DNA of 64,000 nucleotides from positions 25,161-89,160 of the forward strand of contig JBBHKE010002219.1 of the NCBI GenBank assembly GCA_037447655.1, written 5' to 3'. Below are positions 10,164 to 45,600 of the stretch, piece by piece (the stretch's first letter is position 1; the number at the start of each line of letters is the position of its first letter). The notes under the pieces were generated by a model. That model worked only from the letters and a program-made list of their open reading frames with translations. It ran no database searches and had not been told where the DNA came from. Source of the stretch: Zygnema cylindricum (taxonomy: Eukaryota; Streptophyta; Zygnematophyceae; Zygnematales; Zygnemataceae). Both the position numbers and the translations under genes were made by a program.

Positions 10164-10176
10164 CTCCCATTATTTT

Positions 10177-11398: not shown

Positions 11399-11425
11399 CA
11401 TCCGTAGAAAGGGAAACCTTTTAAA

Positions 11426-12034: not shown

Positions 12035-12046
12035 TCATCCCCTCTT

Positions 12047-14329: not shown

Positions 14330-14535
14330 TGTCGAGTGTGCCTGAGAACCGGAACGTTCAGGTAAGATGTCCAAGGAGGTGTGCATGAGAAACCTGCAAT
14401 CCACTCCACACGCTGATGCTTCCCCGGATCTGTGACAATGCCCATATCTCTTCCTTAACCCCCAAGGGATATGCATAGATAATAATGAGGAATGGAGTGG
14501 AAATGAAAAAGTACCCGGTACCCCCCCCCCAGATT
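14330..14535 (-). repeat. 205-base dispersed block, copy 2
   Basis: Same block as at 10283-10487, running from TGTCGAGTGTGCCTG to a C-run plus AGATT. On the left it abuts copia gag. On the right a DNMT-gypsy LTR end (TGTGCTAC at 14537) follows one base later. Confidence 0.8.
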
Positions 14536-14536
14536 A

Positions 14537-15449
14537 TGTGCTACCCCGCTGGAAGCCCACTAAATGCCACACTCCTAGCTACTCTCCAAAGAATAGGAAG
14601 GAATTGAGAGTCGTCCGATCCGTTCCGCAAAAACGCCTGACAAAACCAAAGATGACAACAAGAGTGTGCAAATAACTCCCACGCAGAAATATAGAAATAA
14701 TAAATATCGGCTTTTCAGATTAAACAATATCACCTTGCCCCAGAGAAGGGAATAAGATATAGGTAAACAATAATGGCGAAGCAAGCAAACATACCCCGGA
14801 GTGCAAATATGACCAAATTCAGAAGAAAGAGACTCTCCCAATGGCCCCGAAGACAGGTATGAGTCTCTCTCACCCCTTGGTTCCGCTGTACGGATCCGAC
14901 AAGACTCTTGTAAGTTTCAAACAGCGAAATTCCAAACCGCCCAAAGAGAGAATAGTGCCAACCACCCACCCGAGCTACGGTCTCCACAAAAGACAATCCA
15001 AAACAAAGATGGCAATAGAGTCAACGCCACAATGCAAAAGAAAGGTTGATTTAATTCTTTGAGGTTTTTCTCAGGAGACAGTACTGAAAAAGCCACCTGT
15101 CTCCTCCTGCCCCAAGTGCGTTATACAACCAGAGTTTGTCCTACTGCAAGTGCCAAAGTCAAAGCAATGTGACAAGCCAATCAGCGGATAACAATTGTTA
15201 TCGTAGGGACATAAGACAAGACAGACTGTACTACACTCAGGGCTAAAAGTTAGACGCCTGGTCCCAGCTGGATTAGCGGCCGAAGGTCCTCCTATAATAC
15301 ACAAAAGGGCAACAAAGTTCTGACTCGACGTGAAACCGCCTAACTTTGACCCAACGTCATAAATTCTTTGCCCGTCTGTTGGGCCTGAACTGACATCTTA
15401 CAGACAGCTAACAGTAACATCTACGGGATAATCCCAAAGGTTGCGTGTC
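14537..15449 (-). mobile_element. DNMT-gypsy partial 3' LTR (5' part missing)
   Basis: On the reverse strand this is the last 913 bases of the LTR, ending GGTAGCACA at 14537. It is almost identical to 16046-16960 of the neighbouring full LTR, including the hairpin at 15074-15104. It joins gag directly at about 15449, so the first roughly 260 bases of the LTR and everything between gag and LTR were deleted. Confidence 0.85.
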
Positions 15450-15949
15450 TTAACCTTCAACTCATGGATATTGTGAAGGGCTAAAATCTCCTTACGGCCG
15501 TGTCGGTTAGGATCCGAGAGAAGTTCAGGATCCATGTATGTCTCCACTATCAGAGCCTTGGATCTGGTATAACGTACCACCTCGAGAGGGTGGTCTGCGA
15601 CCGCCTCTTTATGAGCCAAACCTTTCCTACGGGATTGGGGAGCAAAAGTCTGTCTTTCTACCTTCTCCGTAGCCCTGGCGGCCTCGGACAATGTCGGAAA
15701 GTTTTCAAGGGAAAAGACCGGAGGAGGTGGAGGAGAGGGTTGCCTCTCTGGCATCCTCGGAGGAGTCTCAACTACAACAGGCACGGGCATCATTCCGTTA
15801 AGAAACTGTTCAATGTTCAAAGTTGAGGTGAAAGGGACTGCTTCCTCAAGCACCTGTGACTCTTCCTCTTGTGCTACAACTTCTTGTCTCTCTTGTTCTT
15901 CCGGACTGACACCGGAAGGATCCCTATCCTGAGCTTCCCCTCCGCCCAT
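15450..15949 (-). CDS. DNMT-gypsy gag, N-terminal part (partial)
   Basis: The reverse-strand frame starts at the ATG at 15949 (MGGGEAQDRDPSGVSPEE). It shows a Glu-rich region, then PSPPPPPVFSLENFPTLSEA, then basic QSRRKGLAHKEA and GRKEILALHNIHELKVK. The same N-terminus is found at 26974, 32834 and (forward) 37629, so the start is well supported by conservation. This is the matrix-like, low-complexity part of gag; capsid and zinc knuckles are missing. The last residues run into partial LTR sequence. The copy is open but truncated, and cannot make a working capsid alone. Confidence 0.75.
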
Positions 15950-16045
15950 GACTTACAAAAGCAGATAAGCTAGATCTCTCTGATAAAGTCCACCACCCTA
16001 AGCAGCTATCCTCTTAAACAAAAGGGGACAATGGCTTTTCAGTAC

Positions 16046-17217
16046 TGTGCTACTCCGCTGGAAGCCCACTAAATGCCACACTCCTAGCTACTCTCCAAAG
16101 AATAGGAAGGAAATGAGAGTCGTCCGATCCGTTCCGCAAAAACTCCGGACAAAACCAAAGATGACCACAATAGTGTGCAAATAACTCCCATGCAGAAATA
16201 TAGAAATAACAAATATCGGCTTTTCAGATTAAACAATATCACCTTGCCCCAGAGAAGGGAATAAGATATAAATAAACAATAATGGAGAGCAAACAAACAT
16301 ACCCCGGAGTGCAAAGATGAGCAAACTCAGAAGAAGGAGACTCTCCCAATGGCCCCGAAGACAGGTATGAGTCTCCCTCACCCCTCGGTTCCGCCGTACG
16401 GATCCGACAAGACTCTTCTAAGTTTCAAACAGCGTAATTCCAAACCGCCCAAAGAGAGAATAGTGCCAACCACCCACCCGAGCTACGGTCTCCACAAAAG
16501 ACAATCCAAAACAAAGATGGCAATAGAGTCAACGCCACAATGCAAAAGAAAGGTTGATTTAATTCTTTGAGGTTTTTCTCAGGAGACAGTACTGAAAAAG
16601 CCACCTGTCTCCTCCTGCCCCAAGTGCGTTATACAACCAGAGTTTGTCCTACTGCAAGTGCCAAAGTCAAAGCAATGTGACAAGCCAATCAGCGGATAAC
16701 AATTGTTATCGTAGGGACATAAGACAAGACAGACTGTACTACACTCAGGGCTAAAAGTTAGACGCCTGGTCCCAGCTGGATTAGCGGCCGAAGGTCCTCC
16801 TATAATACACAAAAGGGCAACAAAGTTCTGACTCGACGTGAAACCGCCTAACTTTGACCCAACGTCATAAATTCTTTGCCCGTCTGTTGGGCCTGAACTG
16901 ACATCTTACAGACAGCTAACAGTAACATCTACGGGATAATCCCAAAGGTTGCGTGTCATTTCCTATTATATCCCTCTACTAGAGCTACATAGAACACACA
17001 ATATAATGGAGCAGACACTTTGCACCGGACTAACTCCGGCGTTTGACCTCCGTTTAAGGTGGACTAAATTGCGTAGTGCTCCAGGGTGAAAATATAAAGA
17101 TCTGATCCGGTTGGCTGCCACTCCCCCTTCTCCGTATGCTCGAGTCCGTACAAGGTGGAATGAAACCCCGGAACTCCTGGGAGTGCAAATGTGTCGAAGA
17201 TGCACACGAGCTTGACA
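16046..17217 (-). mobile_element. DNMT-gypsy full-length LTR
   Basis: On the reverse strand it starts TGTCAAGCTCGTGTGC (17217) and ends GGAGTAGCACA (16046), 1172 bases with TG...CA ends. Downstream on that strand come a leader and gag (15949). It may be the 5' LTR of the short unit or the 3' LTR of the long copy at 17431-27995 in a tandem arrangement. The surrounding sequence fits both readings. Confidence 0.85.
16582..16612 (-). promoter_or_regulatory. Self-primer hairpin in the DNMT-gypsy LTR
   Basis: On the reverse strand: stem GGAGACAG, 15-base loop GTGGCTTTTTCAGTA, stem CTGTCTCC. The loop plus the start of the 3' stem (GTGGCTTTTTCAGTACTG) pairs with the bases spanning the end of the LTR and the following leader (CAGTACTGAAAAGCCA here, a longer match at 32909-32934). 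A TATAA lies about 30 bases upstream of the loop, so the transcript probably begins within the hairpin, as needed for Tf1-like self-priming. Equivalent hairpins are at 15074-15104, 27618-27648, 33486-33516 and (forward) 3237-3265. Confidence 0.7.
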
Positions 17218-17219
17218 GC

Positions 17220-17423
17220 TGTCGAACGTGCTTGAGAAACGAAACGTTCAGGTAAGATGTCCAATGAGGTGTGCATGAGAAACCTGCAATCCACTCCACA
17301 CACTGATGCTTCTCCGGATTTGTGACAATGCCCATCTCTATTCCTTACCCCCCCAGGGATATGCATAGATAATAATGAGAAATGGAGTGGAAAAGAAAAA
17401 GTACCCGGTACCCCTCCTAGATT
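17220..17423 (-). repeat. 205-base dispersed block, copy 3
   Basis: Same block as at 10283 and 14330. On the reverse strand it lies between the poly-G tract after the PHD-finger gene end and the LTR start at 17217. In this position it could be the 3' untranslated part of the element, but the other two copies have different neighbours. Confidence 0.75.
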
Positions 17424-17467
17424 CCCCCCCCCTCTTAGTCCCGCATGACTTAAGAGGATAAGACAGG

Positions 17468-18060
17468 TTAGCCGCCAAACTCGCAGTCCCCACAGAACCA
17501 CGGATTTGCGGGTTGAGAGCGGGGCTCCCAATTCAGAGGTAGGTAGCAGTCATGCCAACCCTGGTGACAGCGTTCACACACCAACAGGATGTCGGGTATG
17601 GAGGACACATGACAGGCAGATGAACAGGATGGCGGGTCTACAAAGTAAGTGAGGTGGACAGTGGGTTCATCTTTTAACCCTCGCAGGTGGCAAGGGGCCA
17701 CATTGATCTGATTTTCTTTAATTTTGCGGCCGTCCTTCCCTTCCAAGGTGAGAACCCCTTTGTTTGAGACCTCCACAACTTTCAAAATCATCCGTCGGGC
17801 CGAAATGTCCAAAGTGTCCTTCTTTTGTTGCATGGGATACACGAAATCCCCGGGCACAAATCGCCGTTGCCAGGGGACATAATTGCCGCTCCGGCGTTGG
17901 GAATACCAAAGTTGATCCCTGTGTTGAGCAGCCTGTAAATTGCCCATGGCCAGAGGTATTTCCCGCTGAAAGACCTTAGCCTTGTCGGCTATCAGTTTTT
18001 CCACAATCCCCGGTTGTCCATCTCCGGATGCACAACCGCCTAAGCCGATGCAGCCCCTGG
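17468..18060 (-). pseudogene. Integrase C-terminal region with terminal PHD-like finger
   Basis: This is the last part of the gypsy polyprotein. RFVPGDFVYPMQQKKDTLD is the integrase C-terminal domain, followed by MILKVVEVSNKGVLTLEGKDGR and a linker. The last 55 residues contain CSSAC, then LLVCERCHQGWHDCYLPL, then NPWFCGDCEF. The order Cys pair, Cys pair, GWH, Cys, W-x-C-x2-C is that of a PHD finger, a reader of histone H3 tails. The spacing differs slightly from the consensus (C-x3-C at the first pair, one residue rather than two between His and Cys), so one residue may be lost here. It sits where chromoviruses carry a chromodomain, which suggests a role in choosing integration sites. The frame is open from 18100 to the terminal stop. 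Confidence 0.7.
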
Positions 18061-18950
18061 TAGGTTGGGATGTCGGCCGAAGAGAATGAAGTAAGGGCAA
18101 TTGGAGTGGAGAGATGCCTGCCTGCTGAACCTGTACCCCATGGCAATCCTAGGCACCCTTGTGTCCCACTCCCCCAAATCCTCTACCACTTCATATTTCC
18201 GTAGTGACCGCTTCACTGTCTGTACGCACTTCTCGGCCAATCCGTCAGCTTGGGGGTGGTCTCGGCTGGTCAACCTGTGGTCAATGAGGCACTTCTCCAG
18301 AAGGTTAGAAAATTCTCTGGCAAACTCGGACCCCTGATCTGTCAGAACTTGGCCGGTGCTCCAAATTGAGACAACACTCTCTGCAAGAATGTGTCTGCGA
18401 TCGCTTTGGACTCATTTCGGGGAAGAACCACCAATTCAATCCATTTAGAGAAGCGTTCAATCATGACCAGAACAAAACGGTTCCCCCTCCGGCTAGTGGG
18501 AAGTGGTCCCAACAGATACAGTGACCATCTGTAAAACATCTCCCGGATGGGGAGGGAGTGAAGGTCAGTCCCACCCTTTTTCTCAAAAGCAGCTTTCACC
18601 CGGTCACAGGAAGGGCACGTCTGCACCACACGATTGACGTGGGCTCGCAACCCATACCACCAATACGACCCTGTGACCAATGAGGTGGTTCGTTTCTGTC
18701 CGAAGTGCCCGCATTGCTGGTGAAGCCGAACAATGAGCGTTTCCCGATCTGCCGGAGGAGGAACCACTTTCCTCGTCCTATCGGCCCATTTTCGGAGAAG
18801 AATGCCTCGGTCCCATTCATAGGCCGCCATTCGGTTCTGAACACGGGACAATTAACTTCCGGCAAGGTGGGGTAGAGGAGAACCCTTCTGGATAGACTGG
18901 AAGGAATCGGTGTCATTCCATATATCCTTCCGGCCAGCTCCAATGGGGGC
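18040..18950 (-). pseudogene. Ty3/gypsy integrase (zinc and catalytic domains)
   Basis: It joins cDNA into host DNA. The zinc-binding domain reads RLHQQCGHFG...VQTCPSCDRVKAAFEKK (about 18590-18740). The catalytic core reads RWSLYLLGPLP, RFVLVMIERFSKWIELVVLP and later HPQADGLAEKCVQTVKRS. The first catalytic Asp (expected in RWSxDLLGP, seen as Asp in the copy at 45390) is Tyr here. A stop and a frame change near 18342 separate the middle from the GLAEK segment with the catalytic Glu. It follows RNase H and precedes the PHD-bearing tail. Confidence 0.85.
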
Positions 18951-18958
18951 TTGCCCCT

Positions 18959-19805
18959 CTACATCTGCAGCAAAAGTTGATAGTTCTCCTTCAGCCCGAG
19001 GCAGCCAAATAAAAGCAGAAGAAGCCCGGATAAGTCCCAGGCTGAGCTCAGGGTCCTCGTCGTGCCGCGCCCCAGTAGAGTCTCTGGTGGACGGGTCCGG
19101 ATTCCTGCTGAGTCCGTCGGCATTCCCATGAATCTCCCCGGCTCTATGGATGATGCTGAAGTCATATTCCTACAAGATGAGAACCCATCTGGCTAACTTT
19201 CCAGTCAACTTACTGTTCTCCATGATCCATTTGAGGGGCCGGTGATCCGTAATAAGGGTGAAGTGTACTCCATAGAGGTAAGGCTTGAAGTGCTGGATGG
19301 CCCACACCGCAGCAAGTAATTCCCTATGGTAACTGCAGTAATTCCCCTCAGCTCTATTATTACTCTGGCTTACGTAGGCCACTACATACTGAGCCCCGGC
19401 ATCGTCCAATTCAACCAAAATTGCTCCCAATCCGAACCTGCTCCAATTTGTGTAAAGGAGAAAAGGCCGCTGGTGATCGGGCATCCGGAGCACAGGATGC
19501 TGTTTGAGGGAATCCTTCATGAATTGGAACGCTATCTGCTGTTCTTCTTTCCATTCCCACTCTTGGTCCTTTCGCAACAATTGATTCAATGGCTGAGCGT
19601 GGCTACTGAATTCAGGAATAAACCGCCGGTAATAGTGGGCCAGGCCCAGGAAAGTACGAAGAGCGGAAATGTCCTGCTGAGGTGGGAGAGCGTTTAGGGC
19701 TGCCACCTTAACCATGTGGGGACCCACTGTCCCAGGAGTCACCTCATGACCTAAATAAATGATTTTCTGCACCCCAAAGATGCCCTTCCCCGGGTTGCAC
19801 CTCAA
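18959..19805 (-). pseudogene. Ty3/gypsy RNase H domain and connection
   Basis: The connection YLGHEVTPGTVGPHMVKV and FLGLAHYYRRFIPEFSSHA is followed by RNase H (LLYTNWSRFGLGAILVELDD, then HRELLAAVWAIQHFKPYLYG, then LITDHRPLKWI). RNase H degrades the RNA strand of the RNA-DNA hybrid and, in a self-primed element, would also release the primer. The first acidic residue (Asp in YTDWS of the forward copy at 44463) is Asn in this copy. A stop follows at 19170, and the tail before integrase (19165-18959) is in another frame. Confidence 0.88.
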
Positions 19806-19835
19806 GCCCGGTGCTATGAGCGCCCGGAGAACAAT

Positions 19836-20680
19836 CTATATATGCTCCAAGTGTTCCTCGAATATATTGGAGAAGATCACATCGTCGATGTAGCATCGCG
19901 CAAAGTCTGTTCCCCGGAGAGCCTCGTCCATGGCCCGTTGGAATTTGGTAGGTGCATTTTTGAGGCCAAAGGGCATGTATAGCCCCTCATACAGCCTGGA
20001 TCCTGCCCAAAAAGCGGTCCTCTCCCGGTGCTTCGGCTCCATTGCAATCTGGTGAAATCCATTCTTCATATCCAACGTGGAGTAGATGGTGGCCCCAGCA
20101 AGAGAGTTAAAGATCTCTTCCGGGGTAGGCATAGGGTAACAGTCGGAGACAGTTACCGCGTTGAGCATCCGGTAGTCCCCACACATTCGGAAATCTACCG
20201 TTTTTCCGAAGGAGTCTTTCTTTGGCGGTAGCACGGTTGGTGAAGCAAACCCATGTAGCCCTGTACTCTTCGAACCAACCCTGCGTCCACCAAAGTCTGC
20301 ACCTTTGAAGTGATGAACTCCTTCTCCTTGAAACTGAGAGGGTACTGTTTCTGCCAAACAGTTTCCGTCTCGTCGATCAGGTCGATCCAAAAAGGGGTCC
20401 CCTTATAGATCCCTACATCTATGTCAGACCAGGCGAACACCTGCCAGTTCTCTTCTAACAGCTTGGAGAGCCGGGCCTTCTGATGTGGGTCTAGTTGTTC
20501 ACCTAGAGTCCAGTCCATCTTCCCGAGTTCCACTGCCTCCAATGCTTCCGGTGGCCTACCCAAGAGGGAGATGTCGAAGTTCAGCTCTACCTGTGGATTT
20601 GTCCCTTGTTCCGCTGTTAAAACGCTGCTGTTGACAACCTCCCCTAAGCTGTCGTGTTTTGAGCCTCTGTTCCCCCCCAC
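19836..20680 (-). pseudogene. Ty3/gypsy reverse transcriptase
   Basis: RT motifs in order: DWTLGEQLDPHQKARLSKLL (N-terminal lead), LSFKEKEFITSKVQTLVDAG, SPTVLPPKKDSFGKTVDFRM, CGDYRMLNAVTV, YSTLDMKNGFHQIAM (first catalytic Asp), MPFGLKNAPTKFQRAMDEAL and YIDDV (19875-19892; the two other catalytic Asp). All three Asp are intact. A frame change around 20200-20390 divides it. It follows the methyltransferase with a spacer of roughly 100 residues (including VELNFDISLLGRPPEALEAV). RT copies element RNA into cDNA in virus-like particles. Confidence 0.9.
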
Positions 20681-20696
20681 TGAGGAAACTTCTAGG

Positions 20697-22004
20697 TCAG
20701 TGTGTTATCGCTCCCCCCACTGAGGAAGTTCCCGGGTTTGGTATGCTATTTAAATGTAATTTGGTGAATTTGAATTTTTCCCTCCTTGTCTCTCTCCCCC
20801 CCTCAAGCTTTAGAGTTGCTTGCATGGCCAACAACTGTGGAGCTTGAAGGTATGTTGTCCGTGATTGTGGAGACTGAAAGCTTGAGAATGCAAGAGAATG
20901 TTTTAGCACCCAGGAAATTGCATTTAAATCCATATTTTGTCCGATTAAACTGCACCTTCTTGAGGCCGAGACCCCTGGCGCAGCTGTGGTTCCCTGTTGA
21001 AATCCCATTGCCGTTTCCCGTTCTGCAATATTCGGCGTTCTCCATGTGGCGGTTGTACCGTCAAAGATCATTCCTGGTGCGCCCTTCCGGTAAGCGTGGC
21101 TGTTTGGTAAAGATACCAGGGTTGGTAGGGCCCTCCTTGGATTCCCGGGCTTAATACAACAGAAGAAGGGTGCTTCGTCGGCTGTGGTCACCGGTGTGGC
21201 CATTCGCTCCGGTCCGAGGATCTGTTGGACCGTGATGTTAGGATGTGGAACTTTTGTTATCAGCAGCTGTTGGAGGATTGGAAGAGGAACCAAGTTGGTC
21301 CAATATGCCCGAACTCTGTGGGCTCTCGATCCGATCTAAGCTGCATCAAAAACTATGGGAGTCCCTAGAACCTTGGTCACTTGGTTCCAGCTGTTGACCA
21401 CCTGTTTTCTCTTATCATCTGTGGGGTGAACGTTCTCCAAGACGTACCCCACTGGTGTGTCCTGGCGTTCCTGTAACCTTGTTATTAGTCTTATCATTTG
21501 AAAGAAAGTTCTGCTACCGACGTTCTGGTGTCCTCGTCTCTGTCCTGCTAACGAATACCCTTGGCATGGCCATCAAGAGACCACCAGGTCCACCCTTTCG
21601 AGCTTTTCCAAATGGGAATCCGTGATATTGTCCACATTTTGGGGAAGCGTGCGATGAGAGTTAGACATGGCGGACACCGGGAGTTGCAGTGGGTAAAGTT
21701 GGTGCAGCTGTTGCAGTCGGTACTCACTAACTGCACGGGCGTCCGGGTCAATCTCGACTGCCGAGTAAGTTTCTACTTGGTATCCAGCTTTCAGGACAGC
21801 TTCCAGATCGGAACTAATGCCAGAAAATAGTGATAGAATCTTGAGTCTTGAAGGCGAGATTTGTAGTGACACCACTTGTGGATCAAAGTCTTTCCTTTTG
21901 TTAGGAACCGTTGGAAGTTCCGACCGAAGGAATTTTGCTTCTCCGGGTGATATTGCAGCAAAGCTCTTGTCCACTTCCCGCCGAAGTGTGGCCATCTGTA
22001 CCAA
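20697..22004 (-). pseudogene. Retrotransposon-encoded cytosine-5 DNA methyltransferase
   Basis: It transfers a methyl group from S-adenosylmethionine to C5 of cytosine. Motifs in canonical order: I LKILSLFSGISSDLEAVLKAG-like stretch (about 21819-21842), II YSAVEIDPDAR, III NITDSHLEKLERVDLVVS, IV WPCQGYSLAGQRRG with catalytic Cys at 21564-21566, VI YVLENV (about 21429-21445), VIII SRAHRVRAYWTNL (about 21300-21332), and IX-X ETAMGFQQG...LIGQNMDLNAISWVL (about 20890-20990). The order I to X, unlike plant DRM, resembles DNMT3/DNMT1-type enzymes. It lies between protease and RT in the same orientation. Two in-frame stops break this copy, at 21573-21575 just before PCQ and at 21336-21338 before motif VIII. 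Its C-terminal part recurs in the forward copy at 42796-43080, so it is a family trait rather than a chance insertion. Confidence 0.92.
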
Positions 22005-22049
22005 CCGGTTCTGATACTTACTTTCCCACCACTTAGAAATAGGGAATTG

Positions 22050-22748
22050 CTAGATGGAATCGACGATATTGTTAGAGTAGTTGAACAGCTCCGAAGGGGT
22101 TGAGGCAGAGTAGACGAGATAGCATCCAGACACCGGGACAGTCGTTTTTCCCTGGTTCCAAAAATCCAAGGGGACCACCACCTTTGTGCCTTCCGGATCC
22201 TCCGGGTCTGAGACTGTAACTTGTTCCTTCCATACGCTCAACTCTATGTTCAACCTTGTCCACGTAGCCATACCCAGCAAAACTTCAAATTGCTTACCTT
22301 CCACCACTAGGAAGGGAAGCCGAATTTGCACGTGCTGGCCTGCGTCATCAGCAAATTCAATTTCCATGGCTTTTATGATCCCATATACTGGTTGGCTCCC
22401 ACTGCTAACTGTACTCAAGCATATGTCACTTGGACTGATTTTTGGTCAGAGTTCTTCGGGCATTTGTTGTAATGCTGATGTGGTTATTAAGTTAGGAAGA
22501 GCTCCGGTATCCACCACGACATTCTGGTACCCGCCGTATCCATTAAGTTTAAAATTTCTCGTCCTGTTGAGAATAAGAGCCACCAAAAGGGCCTTATAAT
22601 CCCTATCTGCCATAGAAGTTTTTGGTTTTGCCGACATGAAAACTGTCTTGGGGGGTTCTGCCAACGGGACCCTTTCCCTCCTAGTGTGAATCTCTTCCCC
22701 TAATGCCTGAATGAGGGTTTTTTCGGGCAGACTGTGGGAGGAAGCCAA
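22050..22748 (-). pseudogene. Ty3/gypsy aspartic protease
   Basis: It cleaves the polyprotein. VVVDTGALPNLITTSAL (about 22460-22520) is the retropepsin active-site motif DTGA in its hydrophobic setting. Downstream, LPFLVVEGKQFEVLLGMATW (about 22265-22330) matches the second half, where retropepsins have a hydrophobic-LLG stretch. A stop at 22446 and a frame change separate the halves. It precedes the methyltransferase and follows the gag C-terminus. Confidence 0.8.
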
Positions 22749-23529
22749 GTTTTGACATGCGTCAAGGCGTAGGGCATCAAGTGCCGTACTAGCATAATTG
22801 CCAGTTTGGAGGAAAGAGGGAGAGCATTGGGCAATGTAATGGGTGAGTCCTCGTTTTCGGAGTTTTCGTCTTCGATTTCCCCGGTTTCCCCCCCCCCTTC
22901 TTCCTCACTCTCTGCGTCAGAATTCCCCGTAGGAGGTGTAACTGGCTGATCTGTTGATGGTCTCTCAGCTATGTATCTGTCGAACCACTCTTGGTCTGTT
23001 TTAGTGGTTGAAATATTTTCTTTCGGCTGTGTCCTCTGGTAATCTTCAAAACCAGGAGGAAGATTCCTTGGAGCCGGAGGAGGCGGTTAAGTCGGGTTGA
23101 GTCCCAGTCCAATGTTACTGTTCAGAAAGACTGCTCGAGGTGTGAAGGATAAGGGACCGGTGGATTTGCGGCTGTGAACTTTTTTTTCCATCGATTGTTT
23201 GTCTTTCCTCTGGGAGGACGTTGTAGAGTGCAGTTGCCTGCGACTGTCCCCTACACCAACGTTCTAGGCTCCAGACAGAAATGTCCGAGCATGATGAGCC
23301 TTTGGAGGCTCCATATCCCAGCCCATTAGGTCATCATCATCTCCACCCAACGTGGTCTGCTGCTGAAGCTCCGCTAGCATTTGTAGCAGTTCTTTTTTTT
23401 GCTTCTGCAATTTCTAAGCCGGCGTAAGAGGTTGAGGAGTGGCGGCAGGGGATTTTAGTCGGAGAGCAGCTAGTTCTGTTGCCAAAGCGGCCAACTGAGT
23501 GCTCTATTGCTGAATGATATGTTCTGGCG
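22749..23529 (-). other. Gag-protease linker of DNMT-gypsy
   Basis: A low-complexity, acidic and Pro-rich coding region on the reverse strand, without a known domain: segments such as GWDMEPPKAHHARTF and GPLSFTPRAVFLNSNIGLGL, then a Glu/Ser-rich stretch near 22880. The forward copy at 42520-42795 has the same protein (GWDMEPLKAHHAQTLLTGAW). Stops are present. Confidence 0.6.
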
Positions 23530-24057
23530 TCAGTCTGCTAGGTCTCGGTTCATTTGGAGATTGACATCCCAGGGATACAAAAGTTGCAACGGCAAAAGAT
23601 TAACGGTAGTTTCCCCTTCACCCGTGAACAAAGAATATTGCATCATCTCCTTTGGAACCCCATTCTTCCGAAAGCATTGCCCTTCTTTGTTGCCCATGAA
23701 CCCACAAGCTTCACATTTTGACCCCTCAGTGGTATACTTTCCCTTTAGCTCATTAGAGATTTGAGCGTCATCAAATTTCGGAAGTCGGATTTGTCTCAAC
23801 TGGGATTGAGACATCTTGGCAGTTTCAGAGCGTGGAGTAGGTTTATATGTATCCTTGGTGACCGAGGTTTGGTCTCCTCCTGCGCCTCCTTGCTTACGTT
23901 CCTGCTGCTTCTTTGTTCTTTCTGCACGCTCTCTCTCAAACTCCTTCTGCTTGATGGCGAGTTCTGGTTTGAGCTTTCGGGGACACCTTTTCCATCCGTG
24001 ACCGGGCTGGTTAAAGTTCAGGCAGTCGTAAAGAAAAACTTTTTCATCTGCCCCCAT
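23530..24057 (-). pseudogene. DNMT-gypsy gag nucleocapsid with two zinc knuckles
   Basis: It binds element RNA. The first knuckle reads YDCLNFNQPGHGWKRC, where the second Cys of C-x2-C-x4-H-x4-C has become Phe; the relatives at 28560-28620 and 40640-40690 keep CLNC. A basic Glu/Lys/Arg-rich helix follows (FERERAERTKKQQERKQ). The second knuckle reads CEACGFMGNKEGQC with His replaced by Asn; relatives have MGHKEG. It ends with KNGVPKEMMQYSLFTGEGE. Both knuckles are damaged in this copy. Confidence 0.8.
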
Positions 24058-24759
24058 TGCAGGTTCTGGTCGGGCATCCGCTTCTTGTTTCCCCTTAAGC
24101 TTTCGAAAAGCTTGCAGTTATGTCTTTTCATCGTGGCTCAGCGATGTTTCCCCGGCAAAACCTGCAAAGTTGGCTCTTGATTTCTTGGTAACAGCCTTTT
24201 CTCGTGCCTCGCTATGAACAAAATGATCATACAATTTCATAGCCGCCAATGAAATTTCTTGAGCTGTGGGATTCCGGTCGTGTATAGCCTGACTGGCACT
24301 CCAATTGTTCAGAGCTGCCTGTCCTGTTGGCCCGAAGGAATTTCGAACAGCGACAAAATATTTGTTGGCCATAGCCGGTGTATCGATGTTGGACAGTTTA
24401 GTCTTCTGGCAGAGGTTGGAGAGGCGGTTGAACAGCGTCTAGGGAGTTTCATTCTTCAAACAGCGGAAGTCTGTGAACTCCTTGATGGCAGTTTTGTTCC
24501 TTTCTGTGTAAAGGAGTCTCCAAGCGTCCAAAATAGTGGTACAGGGATTAGGATTGGCAACCATCCGGGTGTTTGCTTCGGCTGCCTGTACAGCCTGTAG
24601 GTGGTTGACAGAGGCCCTGCCTTGGGCCTGAGGTTTCATATCCATGGTGAAAGTAGGGGTGAGAGGAGTTGCTGCTGCGGCAGCCAGGTCAGCTGCAGCC
24701 TGAAGAGCCTCGGCGTCCAGAGTCGAATACGATATTTTGATACTAGGAGCCATCAACAA
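24058..24759 (-). pseudogene. DNMT-gypsy gag capsid
   Basis: The reverse strand encodes MAPSIKISYSTLDAEALQAA, an Ala-rich stretch, AWRLLYTERNKTAIKEFTDF, then (after a stop at 24439) a segment with MANKYFVAVRNSFGPTGQAA, NPTAQEISLAAMKLYDHFV and SRANFAGFAGETS. The same protein is found at 28524-29340 and, forward, at 39903-40335. The length and helical composition fit a gypsy gag capsid; the call rests on position between the matrix-like N-terminus and the zinc knuckles. Confidence 0.7.
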
Positions 24760-26974
24760 AAGGTTGACGCTCCTTATAATCGGCCAAAGCTCCTCTGGCT
24801 TGATAATTTATCATCATCGGAAACAGGGTTTTTTCAAAATCTGCCGGGATGGCCCCTCCCGTGTATTTGTTGATTTCGGACTTCGTGAAGGATTTCCACA
24901 GCAGTTCAAAATCAGAGAAAGCAATTCTCGAGTTGTCCTCGGTGAAGATCTGGACGTCTTTCATTCTCCTTTCTTCTTCGGTAAGATTGGTAAACCTTGG
25001 TGACGCTTGTCCGATTGGGCTGACAAACTGAGCCAGTGAGATTGCCCTAGGATCTGCTACCTCGAGATCCGAACCAGTCCCTCCTTCAATAAGAAGGGCG
25101 GTTGTACCAGCGGTGCCCCCCCCCCCCCCCCGCTGAGGAAGGTCTTGCTCTTGAAAAAGTTGGATTGTCGTCTGCTCCTCTATATCCAAGAGAGGCGCGT
25201 GCTTGACGGAGAACTTCGTCTTCCGATGGTATGTGAAGACGAGGTCTAGGTCCCCGGGGAATGGAGGAAGGCTGAGAATGTGAGGAGAGGAAGCTTCGAG
25301 GAGAAGGGGATTGTTTCCTGAAAGGAGTCTGCTTCCAAGGCCTCCTCTGGGAATCTTCGGGAGGAGGAGTTCCAAAACTAGAGGATGGCAAACGTCTGTG
25401 AGGAGGCGAGTTAGACGTCGGGGTTCTAGGGTAGGCAAAGTGGACTGGGTGACCCACGGACTGCTCCCGCGGGAAAATGGACTGCGAGGGGGAAGAGGCG
25501 TGAGTGGGTGATGGAGGAGGAGTGGTAAGTCAGAGGGAAATGTGTAGTCTCCGGTCAGGTTGTAGCTGCACCACTGCCTCCACGGTAGAAGATCCCGCGA
25601 CCGAGACAAATGTAGGGAGATCTATAGCCGAGGCTACCGGATTACCCGACAAATCTACACCCAACCCCTCTTTGTTAGGCCCTGTTGTTTCCTCCCCTTC
25701 CCGCTGAAGAGGAGATTCTGGTCTCGGTTCTGGTGAAGTCGTAGGATGTCGCGTGACATGAGGAGTTGCTTGATCCAGAGGTTGTACTTCCGTCTCTGGG
25801 CTTGTTCTACGGGGAGGTGCTACCTGTCCACTAAGGATTCCCATAGATCTCCGTCTTGCATCCCGTATCAGGATCAGCTCCTGTTCTAATGCTCTCCTTC
25901 TTTCCTCTTCAAGAGCATCCCAATCTATTGCGACTGGTTCGGCCCCCGCCGGAGCCTTATCCTGCGATCGCAAGATCTCAACCAATTTTTGGGTGCTTCT
26001 CACCACACCCAAGAGATCCGCAATCCCCAAGCCGGGTACCTCGGGGTCCGTAGGCCTGGATCGCCATAGTCCATCGGATGGTCGGACAACTGGTACGGAA
26101 GGAGACATAGAACTTTGGGGAATTGAGGCCGAAGGAAAGAATTAATTTTCTTTGACTAGGGGAGCAAATTGACCTTTTCTGTCCCGATGGTTGAACCGGA
26201 AATCTCTCTTAGGCTCGGGTATCTTCCCTTTGCTACTCACTTCCCTGGTCCGGCCCCGAGAAGCTGTTCTGCCCTTAGAAGGCCTACTGGTAGTAGTTTC
26301 CTGAGATATGGTGGGTTGTTGTCGTGAAGTAGACGGCATCTCCGGGTGCTCTCGGGCTGAGATGGGAGAACCACTCTCGGACGAGCTACTTAGGATCTCC
26401 TCTACTCCTCCCACTGGGCGTATGATCCGGGCTTGGTCGCTTCTGGCAACCCGCTGCACTAGCTCCTTCTTAACCTTTAACTCATGGGTATTGTGAAGGG
26501 CTAGAATCTCCTTACGACCGGGTCGGTTAGGATCCGACAGAAGTTCAGGATCCATGTATATCTCCACTATCGGAGCCTTGGATCTGGTATAACGTACCAC
26601 CTCGGGAGGGTGGCCTGGGACCGCTTCCTTATGAGCCAAACCTTTCCTACGGGATTGGGGAGCAAAAGTCTCTCTTTCTACATTCTCCGTAGCCCTAGCC
26701 CTAGCGGCCTCGGACAATGTCGAAAAGTTTTCAGGGGAAAAGACCGAAGGAGGTAGAGGAGAGGGTTGCCTCTTTGGCTTCCTCGGAGGAGTCTCAACTA
26801 CAACATGCTCGTGCATCATTCCCTTAAAAAGCTGTTCAATGTTCAAAGTTGAGGTGAAAGAGACTGCTTCCTTAGGCACATGTGACTCTTCCTCTTGTGC
26901 TATAGCTTCTTGTCTCTATTGTTCTTCCGACTAACACCGGAAGGATCCCTATCCTGAGCCTCTCCTCCGCCCAT
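24760..26974 (-). pseudogene. DNMT-gypsy gag N-terminal half
   Basis: It begins at the ATG at 26974 (MGGGE-type start shared by all copies) and passes through frames 26879-26142, 26108-25530 and 25609-24743. Visible segments: EILALHNTHELKVKKELVQR, HRDRKGQFAP, VVRPSDGLWRSRPTDPEVPG, LGVVRSTQKLVEILRSQDKA, EERRRALEQELILIRDARRR, then a long Pro/Ser/Arg-rich linker, and finally IAFSDFELLWKSFTKSEINK leading into capsid. No known domain was recognised in the linker. A run of about 14 C at 25119-25132 probably disturbs the frame. Stops and frame changes make it non-functional. Confidence 0.7.
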
Positions 26975-27071
26975 GACTTACAAAAGCAGATAAGCTCGAT
27001 CTCTCTAATAAAGTCCACCACCCTAAACAACTATCTTCTTAAACAAAAGGGGACAGTGGCTTTTTCACTGC

Positions 27072-27995
27072 TATGCTACTCCGTTGGAAGCCCACTCGAT
27101 GCCACACTCCCAGCTACTCTCCAAATAATAGGAAAGAAATGAGAGTCGTCTGATCCGTTCCGCAAAAACTCCAGACAAAACCAAAGATGACCACAAGAGT
27201 GTGCAAATAACTCCCACGCAGAAATATAGAAATAACCAATATTGGCTTTTCTGATTAAACAATATCACCTTGCCCCAAAGAAGGGAATAAGATATAGGTA
27301 AACAATAATGGTGAAGCAAGCAAACATACCCCGGAGTGCAAAGATGACCAAACTCAGAAGAAGGAGACTCTCCCAATGGCCCGAAGACGGGTATGAGTCT
27401 CCCTCACCCCTCGGTTACGCCGTACGGATCCGATAAGACTCTTCTAAGTTTCAAACAACGAAAGTCCAAACCGCCCAAAGAGAGAATAGTGCCAACCACC
27501 CACCGAGCTACGGTCTCCACAAAAGACAATCCAAAACAAAGATGGCAATAGAGTCAACGACACAATGCAACAGTTCTCCAACAGAAAGGTTGATTTAATT
27601 CTCTGAGGGTTTTCTCAGGAGACAGTACTGAAAAAACCACCTGTCTCCTCCGGCCCCAAGTGCCTTATACAACCAGAGTGTGTCCTATTGCAAATGCCAA
27701 AGTCAAAGCAATGTGACAAGCCAATCAGCGGCCAGCAATTGTTATCGTACGGACATAAGACAAGACAGACTGTACTACACTTAGGGCTAAAAGTTAGACG
27801 TCTTGTCGCGGCTAGATTAGCGGCCGAAGGTCCTCCAATAATACACAAAAGGGCAACAATGTTCTGACTCGACGTGAAACCGCCTAACTTTGACCCAACG
27901 TCATAAATGCTTTGCCCGTCTGTTGGGCCTGAACTGACATCCTACTAACAGCTAACAGTAAGATCTACGGGATAATCCCAAAGGTTGCGTGTTGT
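27072..27995 (-). mobile_element. DNMT-gypsy 5' LTR (cut by gap)
   Basis: On the reverse strand it ends at 27072 (TAGCATA, a mutated AGCACA). It aligns with the LTRs at 16046-17217 and 32933-34121 but lacks their first roughly 260 bases, lost at the gap. The hairpin is at 27618-27648. The leader next to the LTR reads GCAGTGAAAAAGCCACTGTCCCC, a mutated self-primer site. Confidence 0.85.
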
Positions 27996-28005
27996 NNNNN
28001 NNNNN
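27996..28005. other. Assembly gap (10 N)
   Basis: Ten unknown bases, followed directly by a second mirror-image segment. Confidence 0.99.
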
Positions 28006-28165: not shown

Positions 28166-29512
28166 CAAAAGTTGCATTGGCAGAGGATTAACGGCAGTTT
28201 TCCCTTCGTCTGTAAACAAAGCATACTGCATCATCTCCTTTGGTACTCCATTTTTACGAAAGCATTGCCCTTCTTTGTGGCCCATGAATCCTCAAGCTTC
28301 ACATTTCGACCCCTCAGTAGTATACTTCCCCCTTAGCTCATTAGAGATTTGAGCGTCATCGCATTTCGGAAGGCGGATTTGTCTCAACTGGGATTGATTC
28401 ATTTTGGCCGTTTCAGAGCGTGGAGTAGGTTTATATGTTTCCTTAGTGACTGGGGTTCAGTCTCCTCCTCCTCCTCCTTGCTTGCGTTCTTGCTGTTTCG
28501 TTGTTCTTTCCGCAGGCTCTCTCTCAAACTCCTTCTGCTTGATGGCGAGTTTTTGGTTTGAGCTTTCGGGGGCACCTCTTCCATCCGTGACGGGGCTGGT
28601 TACAGTTCAGGCAGTCGTAAAGAAACACTTTTTCATCTCCCCCCATTGCATGTTCTGGTCGGGCATCCGCTTCCTGTTTCCCCTTAAGCTTCCGCAAAGC
28701 TTGCAGTTCTGTCTGTTCGTCGTGGTTGAGCGATGTTTCCTCGGCGAAACCTGCAAAGTTGGCTCTGGATTTCCCGGTAACAGCCTTTTCTCGTGCCTCG
28801 CTATTGACAAAATGATCATTCAATTTCATAGCGGCCAATGAAATTTCTTGAGCTGTGGGATTTCGATCGTGTATAGCCTGACTGGCACTCCAATTGTCCA
28901 GAGCTGCCTGTCCCGTTGGCCCGAAGGAATTTCGAACAGCGACATAATATTTGGTGGCCATAGCCGAGGTATCGATGGTGGACAGTTTGGTCTTCTGGCA
29001 GAGGCTGGAGAGGCGGTTGAACAGCGTCTGGGGAGTTTCATTCTTCAAACAGCGGAAGTCTGTGAACTCCTTGATGGCGGTTTCGTTCCTTTCTATGTAA
29101 AGGAGTCTCCAAGCGTCCAGAAGAGTGGTACAGGGATTAGGATTGGCAACCATCCGGGTGGCTGCTTCGGCTGCCTGTACCGCCTCCAGGTGGTTGACAT
29201 AGGCCCTGCCTTGGGCCTGAAGTTTCATATCCATGGTGAAAGTGGCGGTGAGAGGAGCTGCGGTTGCGGCAGCCAGGTCGGCTGCTGCCTGAGAGCCTCG
29301 GCGTCCAGAACCAGATCCGATATTTTGATACTGGGGGCCATCAACAAAGGTTGACGCTCCTTGTAATCGGCCAAAGCTCCTCCAGCTAGATAATTTACCA
29401 TTATTGGAAACAAGGTTGTTTCAAAATCTGCTCGAATGACCCCCCCCCCTGTATTTGTTGATTTCAGATTGGGTGAACGACTTCCACAGCAGTTCAAAAT
29501 CAGAGAAAGCAA
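28166..29512 (-). pseudogene. DNMT-gypsy gag capsid and zinc knuckles, second reverse copy
   Basis: The reverse-strand frame 29234-28524 is open for 236 residues: MDMKLQAQGRAYVNHLEAVQ, AWRLLYIERNETAIKEFTDF, YYVAVRNSFGPTGQAALDNW, then an intact zinc knuckle CLNCNQPRHGWKRC (C-x2-C-x4-H-x4-C) and the basic stretch after it. The second knuckle region at about 28260-28310 keeps MGHKEG. Upstream, 29512-29235 (LNCCGSRSPNLKSTNTGG in a shifted frame) continues the N-terminal half. The copy stops at the mirror artefact, so protease and pol are missing. Confidence 0.8.
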
Positions 29513-32834: not shown

Positions 32835-32908
32835 AGCTGACTAGAGAAGAAGATCTAAATCCCCTTATAAAAGTACTTCGATCTGAGAACCTATCCTCTT
32901 AACCTAAA

Positions 32909-32932
32909 GAGACAGGGTGGCTTTTTCAGTAC
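32909..32932 (-). promoter_or_regulatory. Putative self-priming primer-binding site of DNMT-gypsy
   Basis: On the reverse strand the leader directly after the LTR (which ends at 32933) reads GTACTGAAAAAGCCACCCTG followed by TCTC. It pairs with the LTR hairpin region GACAGG-TGGCTTTTTCAGTAC with one extra C, and the pairing extends into the terminal CA of the LTR. No match to a tRNA 3' end was recognised at this site. It fits intramolecular priming as known from Tf1. Confidence 0.65.
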
Positions 32933-42795: not shown

Positions 42796-43251
42796 CGGCC
42801 ACGAAGAAACTGCCTCCCGAATTCGAAAATTGGCTCCCGAGCACTACCAACATTCGTTTCCTTCCCCAACAACCATGTGTATCGAAGGGGAGCAGCAGGA
42901 ATGATATTTGACAACGGAAATGGAGTTTGGACAACGCCAACAGTGGAAGTACGAGAAGAAGCCATGGGATTCACACCGACAAGCACGGCGGCACCAAGTA
43001 TTTCAGACCTCTAGAGGTGCAGCCTACTCGGACAAAGCATGGACATGAATGCAATAACATGGGTCATAAAACACTCTCTGGCATTCTCTAGCCTACAGTC
43101 TCCGCAGTCAAGGGCTAGCTACCTTCAAGCTCCAAAGTTGTTAGCGGTGCAAGCCTACTTGCAGCTTGAGGGGGGAAGGGAGGCAAGAAAACAAATTTTA
43201 TCATCAAAATTTTCCAGTCCCATTGTTTTTCCATAATTAAGGGATTCCTCA
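42796..43251 (+). pseudogene. C-terminal remnant of the cytosine methyltransferase
   Basis: It encodes LPTFVSFPNNHVYRRGAAGM, EVREEAMGFTP, then (after a stop) CSLLGQSMDMNAITWVIKHS and the tail ASYLQAPKLLAVQAYLQLEG. These match residues after motif VIII, including motif X, of the enzyme at 20697-22004. The catalytic part is deleted, so this copy cannot methylate. It shows that at least two copies descend from a methyltransferase-bearing ancestor. Confidence 0.8.
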
Positions 43252-44310
43252 GTGGGGGGGAGCAGAGGCTCGGCAAGGGACAGCTTAGCGGAAGTTGTTA
43301 GTAGCAGCATTTTGAAGGGAGAAGTGGAGGTAGACCCACAAGTAGGGTTAGAATTCGATATCTCCCGCTGGGGTAGACCCTCTTGGGCATGGGCAGCGGT
43401 TAAACCCGGGAAGATGGATTGGACTTTAGGGGAGCAGTTGGACCCTCAGCAAAAGGCCCGGCTCTCACAGCTGTTGGAGAAAAATAAAGAGGTGTTCACC
43501 TAGTCAGATACAGACATAGGCATCTACAAAGGGACCCCCTTTCGAATCGATTTAATAGACGAGACGTCTACTGTTTGGTAGAAGCAGTACCCTCTCAGTT
43601 TGAAAGAAAAGGAATTCATCACGGCAAAGGTACAAACTCTGGTGGAAAGAGGATTGGTGCACGAAAATACCAGACTCCATGGATTTGGGTCCCCAACCGT
43701 TCTCCCACGCAAGAAGGACTCTTCCGTGAAAACGGTAGACTTTCAGATGTGTGGAGACTACCGGATGCTTAACACGACAACTGTACCTGACCGATACCCA
43801 ATGCCTACCTCGGAAGAGATTTTTGACTCTTTGGCTGGGGCCACCATTTACTCCACCTTAGACATGAAGAATGGGTTCCACTAGATCGCGATGGAGCGAA
43901 AGCACCGGGAAAAGACATTTTTCTGGGCACGATCCAGGTTGTATGAATGGCTCTACATGCCATTCGGGCTGAAGAATGCACCTGCCAAATACCAACGTGT
44001 CATGGATGAGGCACTCCAGCGGATTGACTGTGCACGATGTTACATCAACGATGTTATTATCTTCTCAAAGACCTTCGAGGAACACTTGGAGCACATACAG
44101 ATTGTACTCCGGGCTCTCCAAGTAGCGGGCTTGAAATGTCACCTGGGTAAGGGAATTTTTAGGGTGCAGAAAAGTTTTTACCTGGGACATGAAGTTACAC
44201 CTGGGACAATGGGTCCCCATATGGTCAAGGTGTCAGCCCTTGATGCCCTTCCCCCTCCTCAACACGTCTCTACACTCCGCAAGTTTTTAGGCCTGACTTA
44301 CTACTATTAG
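43252..44310 (+). pseudogene. DNMT-gypsy reverse transcriptase, forward copy
   Basis: Order as in the reverse copy: DWTLGEQLDPQQKARLSQLL, LKEKEFITAKVQTLVERGLV, SPTVLPRKKDSSVKTVDFQM, CGDYRMLNTTTVPDRYPMPT, YSTLDMKNGFH, MPFGLKNAPAKYQRVMDEAL, and YINDV in place of YIDDV, so one of the paired catalytic Asp is Asn. Stops at 43501-43503, 43579-43581 and 43882-43884 replace Trp, Gln and Gln codons of the reverse copy. The part after 44051 is nearly identical to 37162-37535. Confidence 0.88.
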
Positions 44311-44948
44311 AGTTTCATCCTTTAATTTAGCAATCAAACTCAGCCTTTGAGCTAGTTGTTGCGGAAGAATTAGGAGTGGCAGTGGGCAAAATATCATTCC
44401 AATTTCTAAAGGATTCCCTAAAGCAACACCTAGTGCTCTAGATGCGCGATCATCAGAGGCCATTACTCATTTACACTGATTGGAGCAGGTTTGGATTTGG
44501 AGTTGTTTTAGCTCAACTGGACGATGCGGGGGCCGAATATGTGGTGGCTTACGCTAATAGAAGTAAGAACCGAGCGGAGGGGAATTACACCAGCTACCAC
44601 GACGAGTTACTCGCAGCTTTCTGTGCAATCCGACATTTCAGACCATATCTATACGGGGTTTACTTCACCTTGATTACGGATCACCAACCTCTCAAGTGGA
44701 TTATGGAGAACAGTAAATTAACTGGCAAGCTCGCCAGATGGGTGTTAATACTGCAGGAATATGATTTCGACATAATCCACCGGGCTAGAGAAATCCATGG
44801 GATTGTCGATGAACTTAGCAGAAATCTTTACCCTTCCACAAGAGATTCTATCGTGGCCTGTCACGATAAGGATCTCAAAATCAGTTTGGGGCGTATTCCA
44901 GCTTCCACTGCCTTTATTTGGCTTCCTCAATCAGGGGGGGAACTGTGA
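44311..44948 (+). pseudogene. DNMT-gypsy RNase H, forward copy
   Basis: After a short region rich in stops (44308-44440), RNase H is open: LIYTDWSRFGFGVVLAQLDD (first Asp intact), YHDELLAAFCAIRHFRPYLY (Glu), LITDHQPLKWIMENSKLTGK (Asp) and QEYDFDIIHRAREIHGIVDE. It ends at 44946 with a stop. It is the best RNase H of the family in the window. Confidence 0.88.
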
Positions 44949-45059
44949 ACTTTCTCTGCAAGCATAGAGGGGCAAGCGCCAATAGTGGCCGGGCGGAAAG
45001 ATATTTGGAATGACCTTGATACACTTCAATCTATCCAACAAGGTTCCCCTCTTTCCCAT

Positions 45060-45425
45060 TTGTCTATAGTTCAATAATCCCAGGCTCAAACTCGAATGGC
45101 GCCGTACGAGTGGGAAAGAGGCATTTTAATATGGAAATGGGCAGACGCGATGAGGAAAGTGGTTTCTCCCCCGGCTGACAAGGAGACTCTTATTTTTCGC
45201 CTCAACCAACAATGTGGCCATTTTGGGAAAAAACGGATCACCTCCCTAGTCAGACAATCGTATTGGTGGCAAAGGTTATGGACCCAAGTCAACCGGATTG
45301 TGCAAACGTGTTCTCACGTGACCAAGTCAAAGCATCTTTCAACAAAAAGGGAGGTATTCAACTTCATTCCCTTCCCATCCGGGGAATGTTTTATCGGTGG
45401 TCTGTGGATCTCTTGGGTCCTCTCC
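45060..45425 (+). pseudogene. DNMT-gypsy integrase, N-terminal part, truncated
   Basis: It encodes MAPYEWERGILIWKWADAMR, then the zinc domain (RLNQQCGHFGKKRITSLVRQ ... VNRIVQTCSHVTKSK, where the second Cys of the CxxC is lost and a frame change follows), then LHSLPIRGMFYRWSVDLLGP with the first catalytic Asp. It is cut at about 45425 by reverse-strand copia gag sequence. The rest of integrase and the PHD finger are missing. Confidence 0.8.
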
Positions 45426-45600
45426 TCAGAATCATACGAGCTTGTCATGAACTTGAGTCAGAAAAGCCTTTTTCTTTCCTCCATCTTTTGAGGAACCTTG
45501 TCCATCTTTCAGTAAGAGATCTGCAAGTTTGACACAATTTGCCATATAATGTCCCTGTTTCTTACAAAAGTGACATAATCCACCTCGATGAGCTCCTCTC
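45426..45600 (-). pseudogene. Copia gag C-terminus with intact zinc knuckle
   Basis: The reverse strand reads AHRGGLCHFCKKQGHYMANC, with C-x2-C-x4-H-x4-C intact, then VKLADLLLKDGQGSSKDGGK. It is the continuation of the gag at 46778-47681, separated by a solo LTR. Beyond 45426 the element is truncated against DNMT-gypsy integrase. The zinc knuckle packages RNA. Confidence 0.8.

What the first reader, a model, noticed from the sequence alone, without database searches (positions are those of the whole stretch)
17424..27995. A gypsy retrotransposon that carries both a DNA cytosine methyltransferase and a PHD-like histone reader
Seen: between protease (DTGA) and RT (YIDDV) lies a reverse-strand protein with C5-methyltransferase motifs I, II, IV (PCQ), VI (ENV), VIII and X in canonical order, and the polyprotein ends in a Cys/His pattern of a PHD finger. 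Established: methyltransferases captured by retrotransposons were reported in charophytes and dinoflagellates (de Mendoza and colleagues, 2018), and chromoviruses use a terminal chromodomain to target integration. Inference: one element may combine a DNA-methylation writer and a histone-tail reader, so new cDNA could be methylated and placed by chromatin state. I do not know of this exact combination being described.
Basis: partly seen in the sequence, partly recalled or inferred. Interest (0 to 1): 0.92.

Follow-up and report, generated by a model that had tools for sequence, protein, structure and literature searches.

The report
Retrotransposon with DNA methyltransferase and PHD
A jumping gene with probably hundreds of copies in its host genome carries, in one protein string, an enzyme of the kind that methylates DNA and a finger domain of the kind that reads histone tails, and evolution has conserved both, which suggests that the element brings its own chromatin tools when it copies itself.

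The parts
27074..27995 (-). A1: 5' terminal repeat unit A (about 915 bp) of copy 1; begins at a 10-N assembly gap (27996-28005)
   Evidence: Repeat families; boundaries; gap
23530..26915 (-). gag-like region (several broken reading frames)
   Evidence: Position; repeated in copy 2 (28166-30783, 31964-32929) and copy 3 (37547-41098); the pieces scanned have no Pfam gag hit, so the label is by position
22050..22904 (-). protease region with VVDTGA, same frame as the MTase
   Evidence: one frame 22904-20697; no Pfam hit on the window pieces; weak, below-cut-off Asp_protease_2 in homologues P0002 and P0014
20790..22049 (-). DNMT3-type C5-cytosine methyltransferase, canonical motif order
19839..20402 (-). 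reverse transcriptase (YIDDV)
   Evidence: RVT_1 8e-19
19173..19835 (-). end of RT and RNase H
   Evidence: RT_RNaseH 2.4e-31
18043..18851 (-). integrase: H2C2 zinc site and rve (DDE) core, split by a frameshift
   Evidence: Integrase_H2C2 7.8e-16; rve 5e-4 and 0.017, both below the Pfam cut-off; family profile matches Ty3 and PFV integrase
17723..18040 (-). integrase C-terminal helix and SH3-like barrel
17471..17722 (-). end of the polyprotein with the PHD finger (C4HC3 at 17626-17483)
   Evidence: 431 candidate places in the genome, 40 scored, all match
17220..17425 (-). B1: repeat unit B (about 206 bp) after the PHD stop
16958..17219 (-). X: about 261-bp spacer between B1 and A2
16046..16957 (-). 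A2 (first of two tandem A units)
15448..16039 (-). start of gag between two A units (tandem duplication or deletion derivative)
14537..15449 (-). second A unit, joined directly to B2
14330..14536 (-). B2: terminal repeat unit ending in CTCGACA
   Evidence: same sharp end in other copies before unlike DNA
42796..43233 (+). copy 3 of the family: C-terminal part of the MTase before its RT; the rest of the MTase and the protease region are missing from this copy
43582..45529 (+). copy 3: RT, RNase H and start of integrase; no PHD found for this truncated copy

Best explanation
This is a decayed copy of a Ty3/Gypsy retrotransposon family, probably hundreds of copies strong, whose pol polyprotein has two built-in chromatin tools: a DNMT3-type cytosine methyltransferase between protease and RT, and a PHD finger at the end of the integrase. 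SHOWN: anatomy; family and predicted fold of the MTase; presence of both domains in many copies; purifying selection on both; DIRS-like split repeats (A1 - coding - B1 - X - A2 - B2) around a Gypsy-type pol with a DDE integrase. INFERRED: after proteolytic release the MTase stays with the particle or pre-integration complex and methylates CpG on newly made double-stranded cDNA, so that a new copy arrives already methylated and is tolerated; the PHD on the integrase tethers the complex to nucleosomes, most likely at unmodified H3K4 (many of its solved relatives are such readers, and it has GWH where trimethyl-K4 readers have a cage Trp two residues before the His; both recalled), steering insertion away from active promoters, as chromodomains steer other Gypsy elements. 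Rough confidence: anatomy and conservation 0.95; cDNA methylation 0.5; PHD as integration tether 0.5.
For: MTase identity. One frame with the protease region. MTase and RT in one open frame in the nearest relative P0001 (51%). PHD; zinc ligands kept in 23-25 of 25 copies, except the Cys of the H-x-C pair, 19 of 25 in window register. Catalytic residues among copies: motif IV Cys 37 of 37, motif VI Glu 36 of 37, Asn 37 of 37. Copies: 417 and 431 candidates, 40 of each scored; both domains in 24 of 39 fetched copies. Selection, in frame (other two frames): MTase thirds 0.46 (0.57, 1.02), 0.36 (1.14, 1.12), 0.38 (1.01, 1.02); PHD 0.36 (0.79, 1.07); RT 0.32 (0.74, 0.98); integrase 0.24 and 0.30. 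Window copies 1 and 3, 118 codons of the MTase end and what follows it: dN/dS 0.13 (bootstrap 5-95% 0.07-0.22 from 271 of 300 usable draws), 1.06 and 2.4 in other frames. Wider family: 82 of 120 listed PHD-terminal proteins have the MTase. Repeats. Precedent: SymbioDIRS-Dnmt3 MTases methylate CpG de novo in yeast (PMC5890265 section 10).
Against: No activity or binding was or could be measured. The MTase of the nearest published kind (KnitGypsy-Dnmt3) gave no methylation in yeast, which its authors call inconclusive. 8 of 59 relatives spanning RNase H to integrase have no MTase match, so it seems dispensable in some. dN/dS among copies mixes selection with neutral decay; MTase third 1 is hardly lower than its +1 frame (0.46 vs 0.57). 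Most copies are decayed: all three MTase thirds open in 5 of 34. This copy shows no clear CpG decay signature (CpG o/e 0.64 vs GpC 0.80, TG+CA not raised). The PHD reader class rests on sequence relatives only; the fold search did not test the PHD.
Confidence: 0.6

Rival explanations
1. One reading: the PHD and the MTase act together on host chromatin (as ADD and catalytic domain do within DNMT3), methylating the insertion neighbourhood or sibling copies rather than the cDNA.
For: Both sit on one polyprotein and both are constrained; PHD matches in PDB include CHD4, KDM5, ATXR5 and BAZ2 (that these and the DNMT3 ADD read unmodified H3K4 is recalled).
Against: The PHD sits on the integrase end, separated from the MTase by RT and RNase H here; a Gypsy protease would separate them if cleavage is complete (not tested).
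Confidence: 0.25
2. The PHD-like cluster is a zinc finger for DNA, RNA or integrase assembly, not a histone reader.
For: The window copy alone is below the Pfam cut-off; reading of histones cannot be tested here.
Against: The family profile matches many solved PHDs (e.g. KDM5-type lid 4.5e-19, PHF12 1.4e-18, ATXR5 1.1e-16); its position is that of chromodomain and Tudor readers on other Gypsy integrases (PMC12477816 passages).
Confidence: 0.15
3. The MTase is a protection or counter-defence enzyme: it shields element DNA from nucleases, or acts against DNA viruses for the host.
For: Defence against DNA viruses is proposed for transposon methylases in PMC6338049 (passages).
Against: No test here; DNMT3-type enzymes write CpG marks used for silencing (recalled).
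Confidence: 0.08
4. The MTase is a separate insertion limited to this locus, or a chance run of motifs.
For: None found.
Against: One frame with the protease region; 417 candidate genome places, 40 scored and all matching; 35 of 39 fetched copies carry all three MTase parts, 35 the protease region and 34 the RT; protein relatives in other organisms.
Confidence: 0.01

Closest known systems
KnitGypsy-Dnmt3 of Klebsormidium nitens (de Mendoza et al. 2018, PMC5890265; sections 9 and 10 and passages read; figures and supplements not seen)
   Same: Dnmt3-type, unrearranged MTase inside a Gypsy Pol ORF; repeats like DIRS with Gypsy domains (legend text); purifying selection on the MTase; several copies.
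   Different: The paper's main text has no word 'PHD' (0 occurrences; its figure 4c was not seen); it describes an acquisition in the K. nitens lineage. Here a PHD ends the integrase and relatives occur in chlorophytes and bryophytes. No K. nitens sequence was compared.
SymbioDIRS-Dnmt3 of Symbiodinium (same paper)
   Same: Dnmt3 in a retrotransposon with split repeats; shown to methylate CpG de novo in yeast.
   Different: Tyrosine-recombinase DIRS element, not Gypsy.
Chromoviruses and Ectocarpus reader-bearing Gypsy elements (chromodomain, Tudor; PMC12477816, passages only)
   Same: A histone-reader domain at the C-terminus of a Gypsy polyprotein.
   Different: Reader is a chromodomain or Tudor domain, not PHD; no MTase is mentioned for them in the passages seen.
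DNMT3A/DNMT3B
   Same: Best sequence and fold match of the MTase, canonical motif order.
   Different: 23-26% identity in the structural alignments; no PWWP or ADD match in the MTase piece scanned; part of a retrotransposon polyprotein.

Membership tests
Ty3/Gypsy LTR retrotransposon | Pol order PR - RT - RNase H - IN with DDE (rve) integrase | tested here: met
   family integrase profile matches Ty3 7q5b at 1e-30; an MTase stands between PR region and RT; PR itself by motif and position only
KnitGypsy-Dnmt3 kind | Dnmt3-type MTase inside the Pol frame, not rearranged | tested here: met
   P0001 has MTase and RT in one frame
KnitGypsy-Dnmt3 kind | DIRS-like repeats A - coding - B - A - B with Gypsy domains | tested here: met
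   Window; PHD-B-X-A in 20 of 39 fetched copies; A-B2 joint in L092 and L062. Limits: the window's A1 side abuts a gap; A1 was not read in other copies; most copies were not read past A2
KnitGypsy-Dnmt3 kind | MTase under purifying selection | tested here: met
   (weaker among genome copies, 0.36-0.46, than the paper's Ka/Ks under 0.2)
KnitGypsy-Dnmt3 kind | Same sequence clade as the K. nitens element | not tested
   No protein named as K. nitens is in the hit lists
DNMT3 (catalytic domain) | C5-MTase motifs in canonical order; DNMT3 nearest | tested here: met
DRM (plant) | Rearranged motif order | tested here: not met
   Motif order canonical
Chromovirus | C-terminal chromodomain on integrase | tested here: not met
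   C-terminal piece has only a (weak) PHD match in Pfam
DIRS | Tyrosine recombinase | tested here: not met
   H2C2 and rve integrase instead; no recombinase match in the 10 pieces scanned
PHD finger | C4HC3 zinc ligands | tested here: met
   Pattern in 126 of 127 related proteins and read whole in an open frame in 15 of 25 genome copies
Histone-reading PHD | Binds histone H3 tail | not testable with these tools
   Only sequence kinship

The most novel reading that the evidence does not exclude
An old, green-lineage-wide Gypsy clade moves with a built-in writer-reader pair: it methylates its own cDNA de novo and uses a PHD that recognises unmodified H3K4 to insert into silent chromatin, so each new copy is born silent in a silent place and is tolerated. 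The pair was kept although the MTase changed place in the polyprotein (PR-MTase-RT in streptophytes, RNaseH-MTase-IN in chlorophytes), on an element that combines DIRS-like split repeats with a DDE integrase.
Probability: 0.3. Interest if true: 0.88.

Novelty: new variant of a known kind. Interest (0 to 1): 0.72.

Why it matters
Retrotransposons are usually seen as targets of DNA methylation. A family under selection to keep both a DNA methyltransferase and a histone-reader-like domain would be a clean case of an element that manages its own silencing and placement, and it offers a comparison: relatives with PHD but without an MTase match exist (8 of 59). It also widens the known MTase-bearing Gypsy elements from one charophyte to chlorophytes and bryophytes: the 2018 authors describe an acquisition in the K. 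[quoted passage not shown]

Tried and rejected

Literature: ten searches of open-licence PMC listed no paper that I recognised as describing a Gypsy element with both MTase and PHD; I opened five papers in sections or passages (PMC5890265, PMC6338049, PMC12344493, PMC12477816, PMC3286476; the last proved irrelevant). Subscription papers, bioRxiv, figures, supplements and Repbase entries were not searchable, so the combination may be described there.
Full report
WHAT IS THERE. The window holds several copies of one retrotransposon family. Copy 1 lies on the minus strand. Its frame from 22904 to 20697 is one frame of 736 codons with five stops, the last at its end, and it holds the DTGA protease region and then a complete C5-cytosine MTase. 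RT, RNase H and integrase follow with frameshifts, and the last piece ends in a C4HC3 cluster. Copy 3 on the plus strand (37547-45529) keeps the last part of the MTase before its RT, although it has lost the rest of the MTase and the protease region. Copy 2 (28166-33862) is a gag-side fragment.

THE PHD. Alone it is weak: 12.7 bits against a cut-off of 24, best PDB matches MTF2 and ATXR5 PHD at E 0.007, and 11 bits against a home-made five-seed PHD profile. In context it is firm: the 226-residue C-terminal piece matches 127 of 167 collected proteins, and in 121 the alignment runs into the PHD, with up to about 41% identity. The family profile finds Ty3 and PFV integrase over the integrase and CHD4, KDM5, PHF12, KMT2D, ATXR5, BAZ2 and other PHDs over the finger (60 of 126 matches shown). 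That many of these read unmodified H3K4 is recalled, not from a call.

IS IT LOCAL? No. The genome of the window (352,776,454 bases, 2689 contigs) has 417 candidate places for a 477-base MTase probe; the 40 scored, the window's included, all match at 89-100%. A 252-base PHD probe has 431 candidates; the 40 scored all match at 90-100%. I fetched 7 kb around each of the 39 scored MTase places other than the window's. Of 39, all three MTase parts are present in 35, the PHD in 25 and both in 24; RT and RNase H each in 34, the protease region in 35 (presence means at least 70% of the probe covered). The 15 without both include copies cut by insertion, truncation or the edge of my fetch (L054 and L071 have PHD sequence beyond or at the edge). 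The fetched copies are those with the best MTase matches, so the share with an MTase is biased upward; the PHD was not selected for. Most copies are decayed: the three MTase thirds are all open in 5 of 34 measured, MTase thirds and PHD in 4 of 24. The zero or near-zero 'no frameshift' counts for PR, RT, IN and CT there probably reflect indels of the window copy used as register.

SELECTION. Pooled pairwise dN/dS in frame, with the +1 and +2 frames as control: MTase 0.46 (0.57, 1.02), 0.36 (1.14, 1.12), 0.38 (1.01, 1.02); PHD 0.36 (0.79, 1.07); RT 0.32 (0.74, 0.98); RNase H 0.24 (0.91, 1.27); integrase 0.24 (1.04, 1.45) and 0.30 (0.85, 1.22); its C-terminal part 0.24 (0.77, 1.31). Pairs are not independent, and post-insertion decay pulls values up. 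The first MTase third and the protease (0.48 against 0.59, 1.01) separate poorly from one control frame. Between the diverged window copies 1 and 3, dN/dS over 118 codons is 0.13, against 1.06 and 2.4 in other frames, with saturated dS. Catalytic residues are kept: motif IV Cys 37 of 37, Glu 36 of 37, Asn 37 of 37; PHD ligands 23-25 of 25, one ligand 19 of 25 where the window copy has an odd spacing.

RELATIVES. A search with the MTase gave 14 proteins, among them a single-frame MTase-RT fusion (P0001, 51% identical) and Marchantia proteins. A search with the integrase-PHD part of P0008 gave 389 matches, 120 listed; by home-made profiles all 120 have the PHD and 82 the MTase. Of 59 that span RNase H to integrase, 51 have the MTase between them and all 59 end integrase-PHD; 8 have no MTase match. 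Most records are unnamed metagenome contigs. Named members with MTase and PHD in one protein are from Haematococcus lacustris (P0096), Pleodorina starrii (P0085), Volvox reticuliferus (P0129) and, by its record name, Chromochloris (P0041). A search with a Marchantia MTase gave 40 proteins, 16 named Marchantia, one Calypogeia fissa and one Sphagnum fallax. In the four bryophyte proteins that go on past the MTase (P0137, P0140, P0144, P0155) RT or RNase H follows it. None of these four reaches the integrase C-terminus, so whether bryophyte elements end in a PHD is open; among proteins in the lists only P0167, from an unnamed contig and on a long branch, shows MTase-RT-RH-IN-PHD like the window. 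In the MTase tree the window groups with P0001 and bryophyte rows (16 rows, 99/99; the DNMT3A outgroup also falls there on a long branch, and chlorophyte-type P0040 lies next to it); 65 other chlorophyte-type rows and P0167 form the other group (98/86). Among 96 near-complete MTases, motif IV Cys is kept in 92 and Glu of motif VI in 93; the motif IV Pro is Glu in 42. One member with all domains has a record name like that of an assembled transcript (P0059), a hint of expression.

REPEATS. Unit A (about 915 bp) stands before the coding region and again after it; unit B (about 206 bp) follows the PHD and again the last A. In 20 of 39 fetched copies the order PHD-B-X-A is seen (one with a shortened A); L092 and L062 show A running into B; in ten copies B ends at the same CTCGACA-type terminus before DNA unlike X. 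This is the DIRS-like arrangement that the 2018 paper states for KnitGypsy-Dnmt3 (figure legend text).

HOW IT LIKELY WORKS. Shown: the element family carries and conserves a DNMT3-type enzyme and a PHD finger on its integrase. Established elsewhere: retrotransposon Dnmt3 domains of SymbioDIRS methylate CpG de novo in yeast, while the KnitGypsy domain did not, inconclusively; reader domains at integrase ends are associated with targeted insertion (passages). Inferred: the MTase marks new cDNA and the PHD places it. The order and timing of cleavage, packaging and methylation are unknown.

KNOWN OR NEW. MTase in a Gypsy pol and the split repeats are known from one charophyte. New here, as far as ten searches could tell: the PHD partner, the conservation of both within a genome, and the spread over chlorophytes and bryophytes. 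I file it as a new variant of a known kind.

Noticed in passing
proteins P0008, P0016-P0133 and P0137, P0140, P0144, P0155: In chlorophyte-type relatives the MTase sits between RNase H and integrase, in the window and bryophyte relatives before RT: the domain moved or was captured twice.
   Followed up: partly
96 near-complete MTases: Motif IV, nearly always PCQ in C5-MTases (recalled), has Glu for Pro in 42 of 96 relatives; the window keeps Pro, as do 35 of 37 genome copies measured.
   Followed up: no
alignments A3 and A4: Many chlorophyte-type members have a further conserved block after the PHD (WGRV...RPxYFxV.F.DG) that looks Tudor-like to the eye; no Pfam Tudor match was listed for the members scanned.
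   Followed up: no
P0042, P0060, P0061, P0070, P0073, P0078, P0084, P0098: Eight relatives with PHD but no MTase match between RNase H and integrase: a natural comparison group.
   Followed up: no
window 10283-10490: A lone B unit next to copia-like sequence, with the same sharp CGACA end as the element terminus.
   Followed up: partly
window 14537-16957: A - start of gag - A arrangement next to B2, apparently a tandem duplication or deletion derivative of the same family.
   Followed up: partly
window 36878-37544: Further RT fragment of the family, 91% identical to 43764-44428 on the plus strand.
   Followed up: no
window 9117-13758, 30774-31964, 41341-42519, 45605-46786, 52858-58831, 60996-63145: Many diverged copies of a second repeat, with copia-like reading frames in places (assigned by eye), some lying inside the Gypsy copies.
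   Followed up: no
L001 and L002 (bacterial MAG records): Gypsy-type RT, RNase H and integrase in records titled as bacterial MAGs, probably eukaryotic contamination.
   Followed up: no
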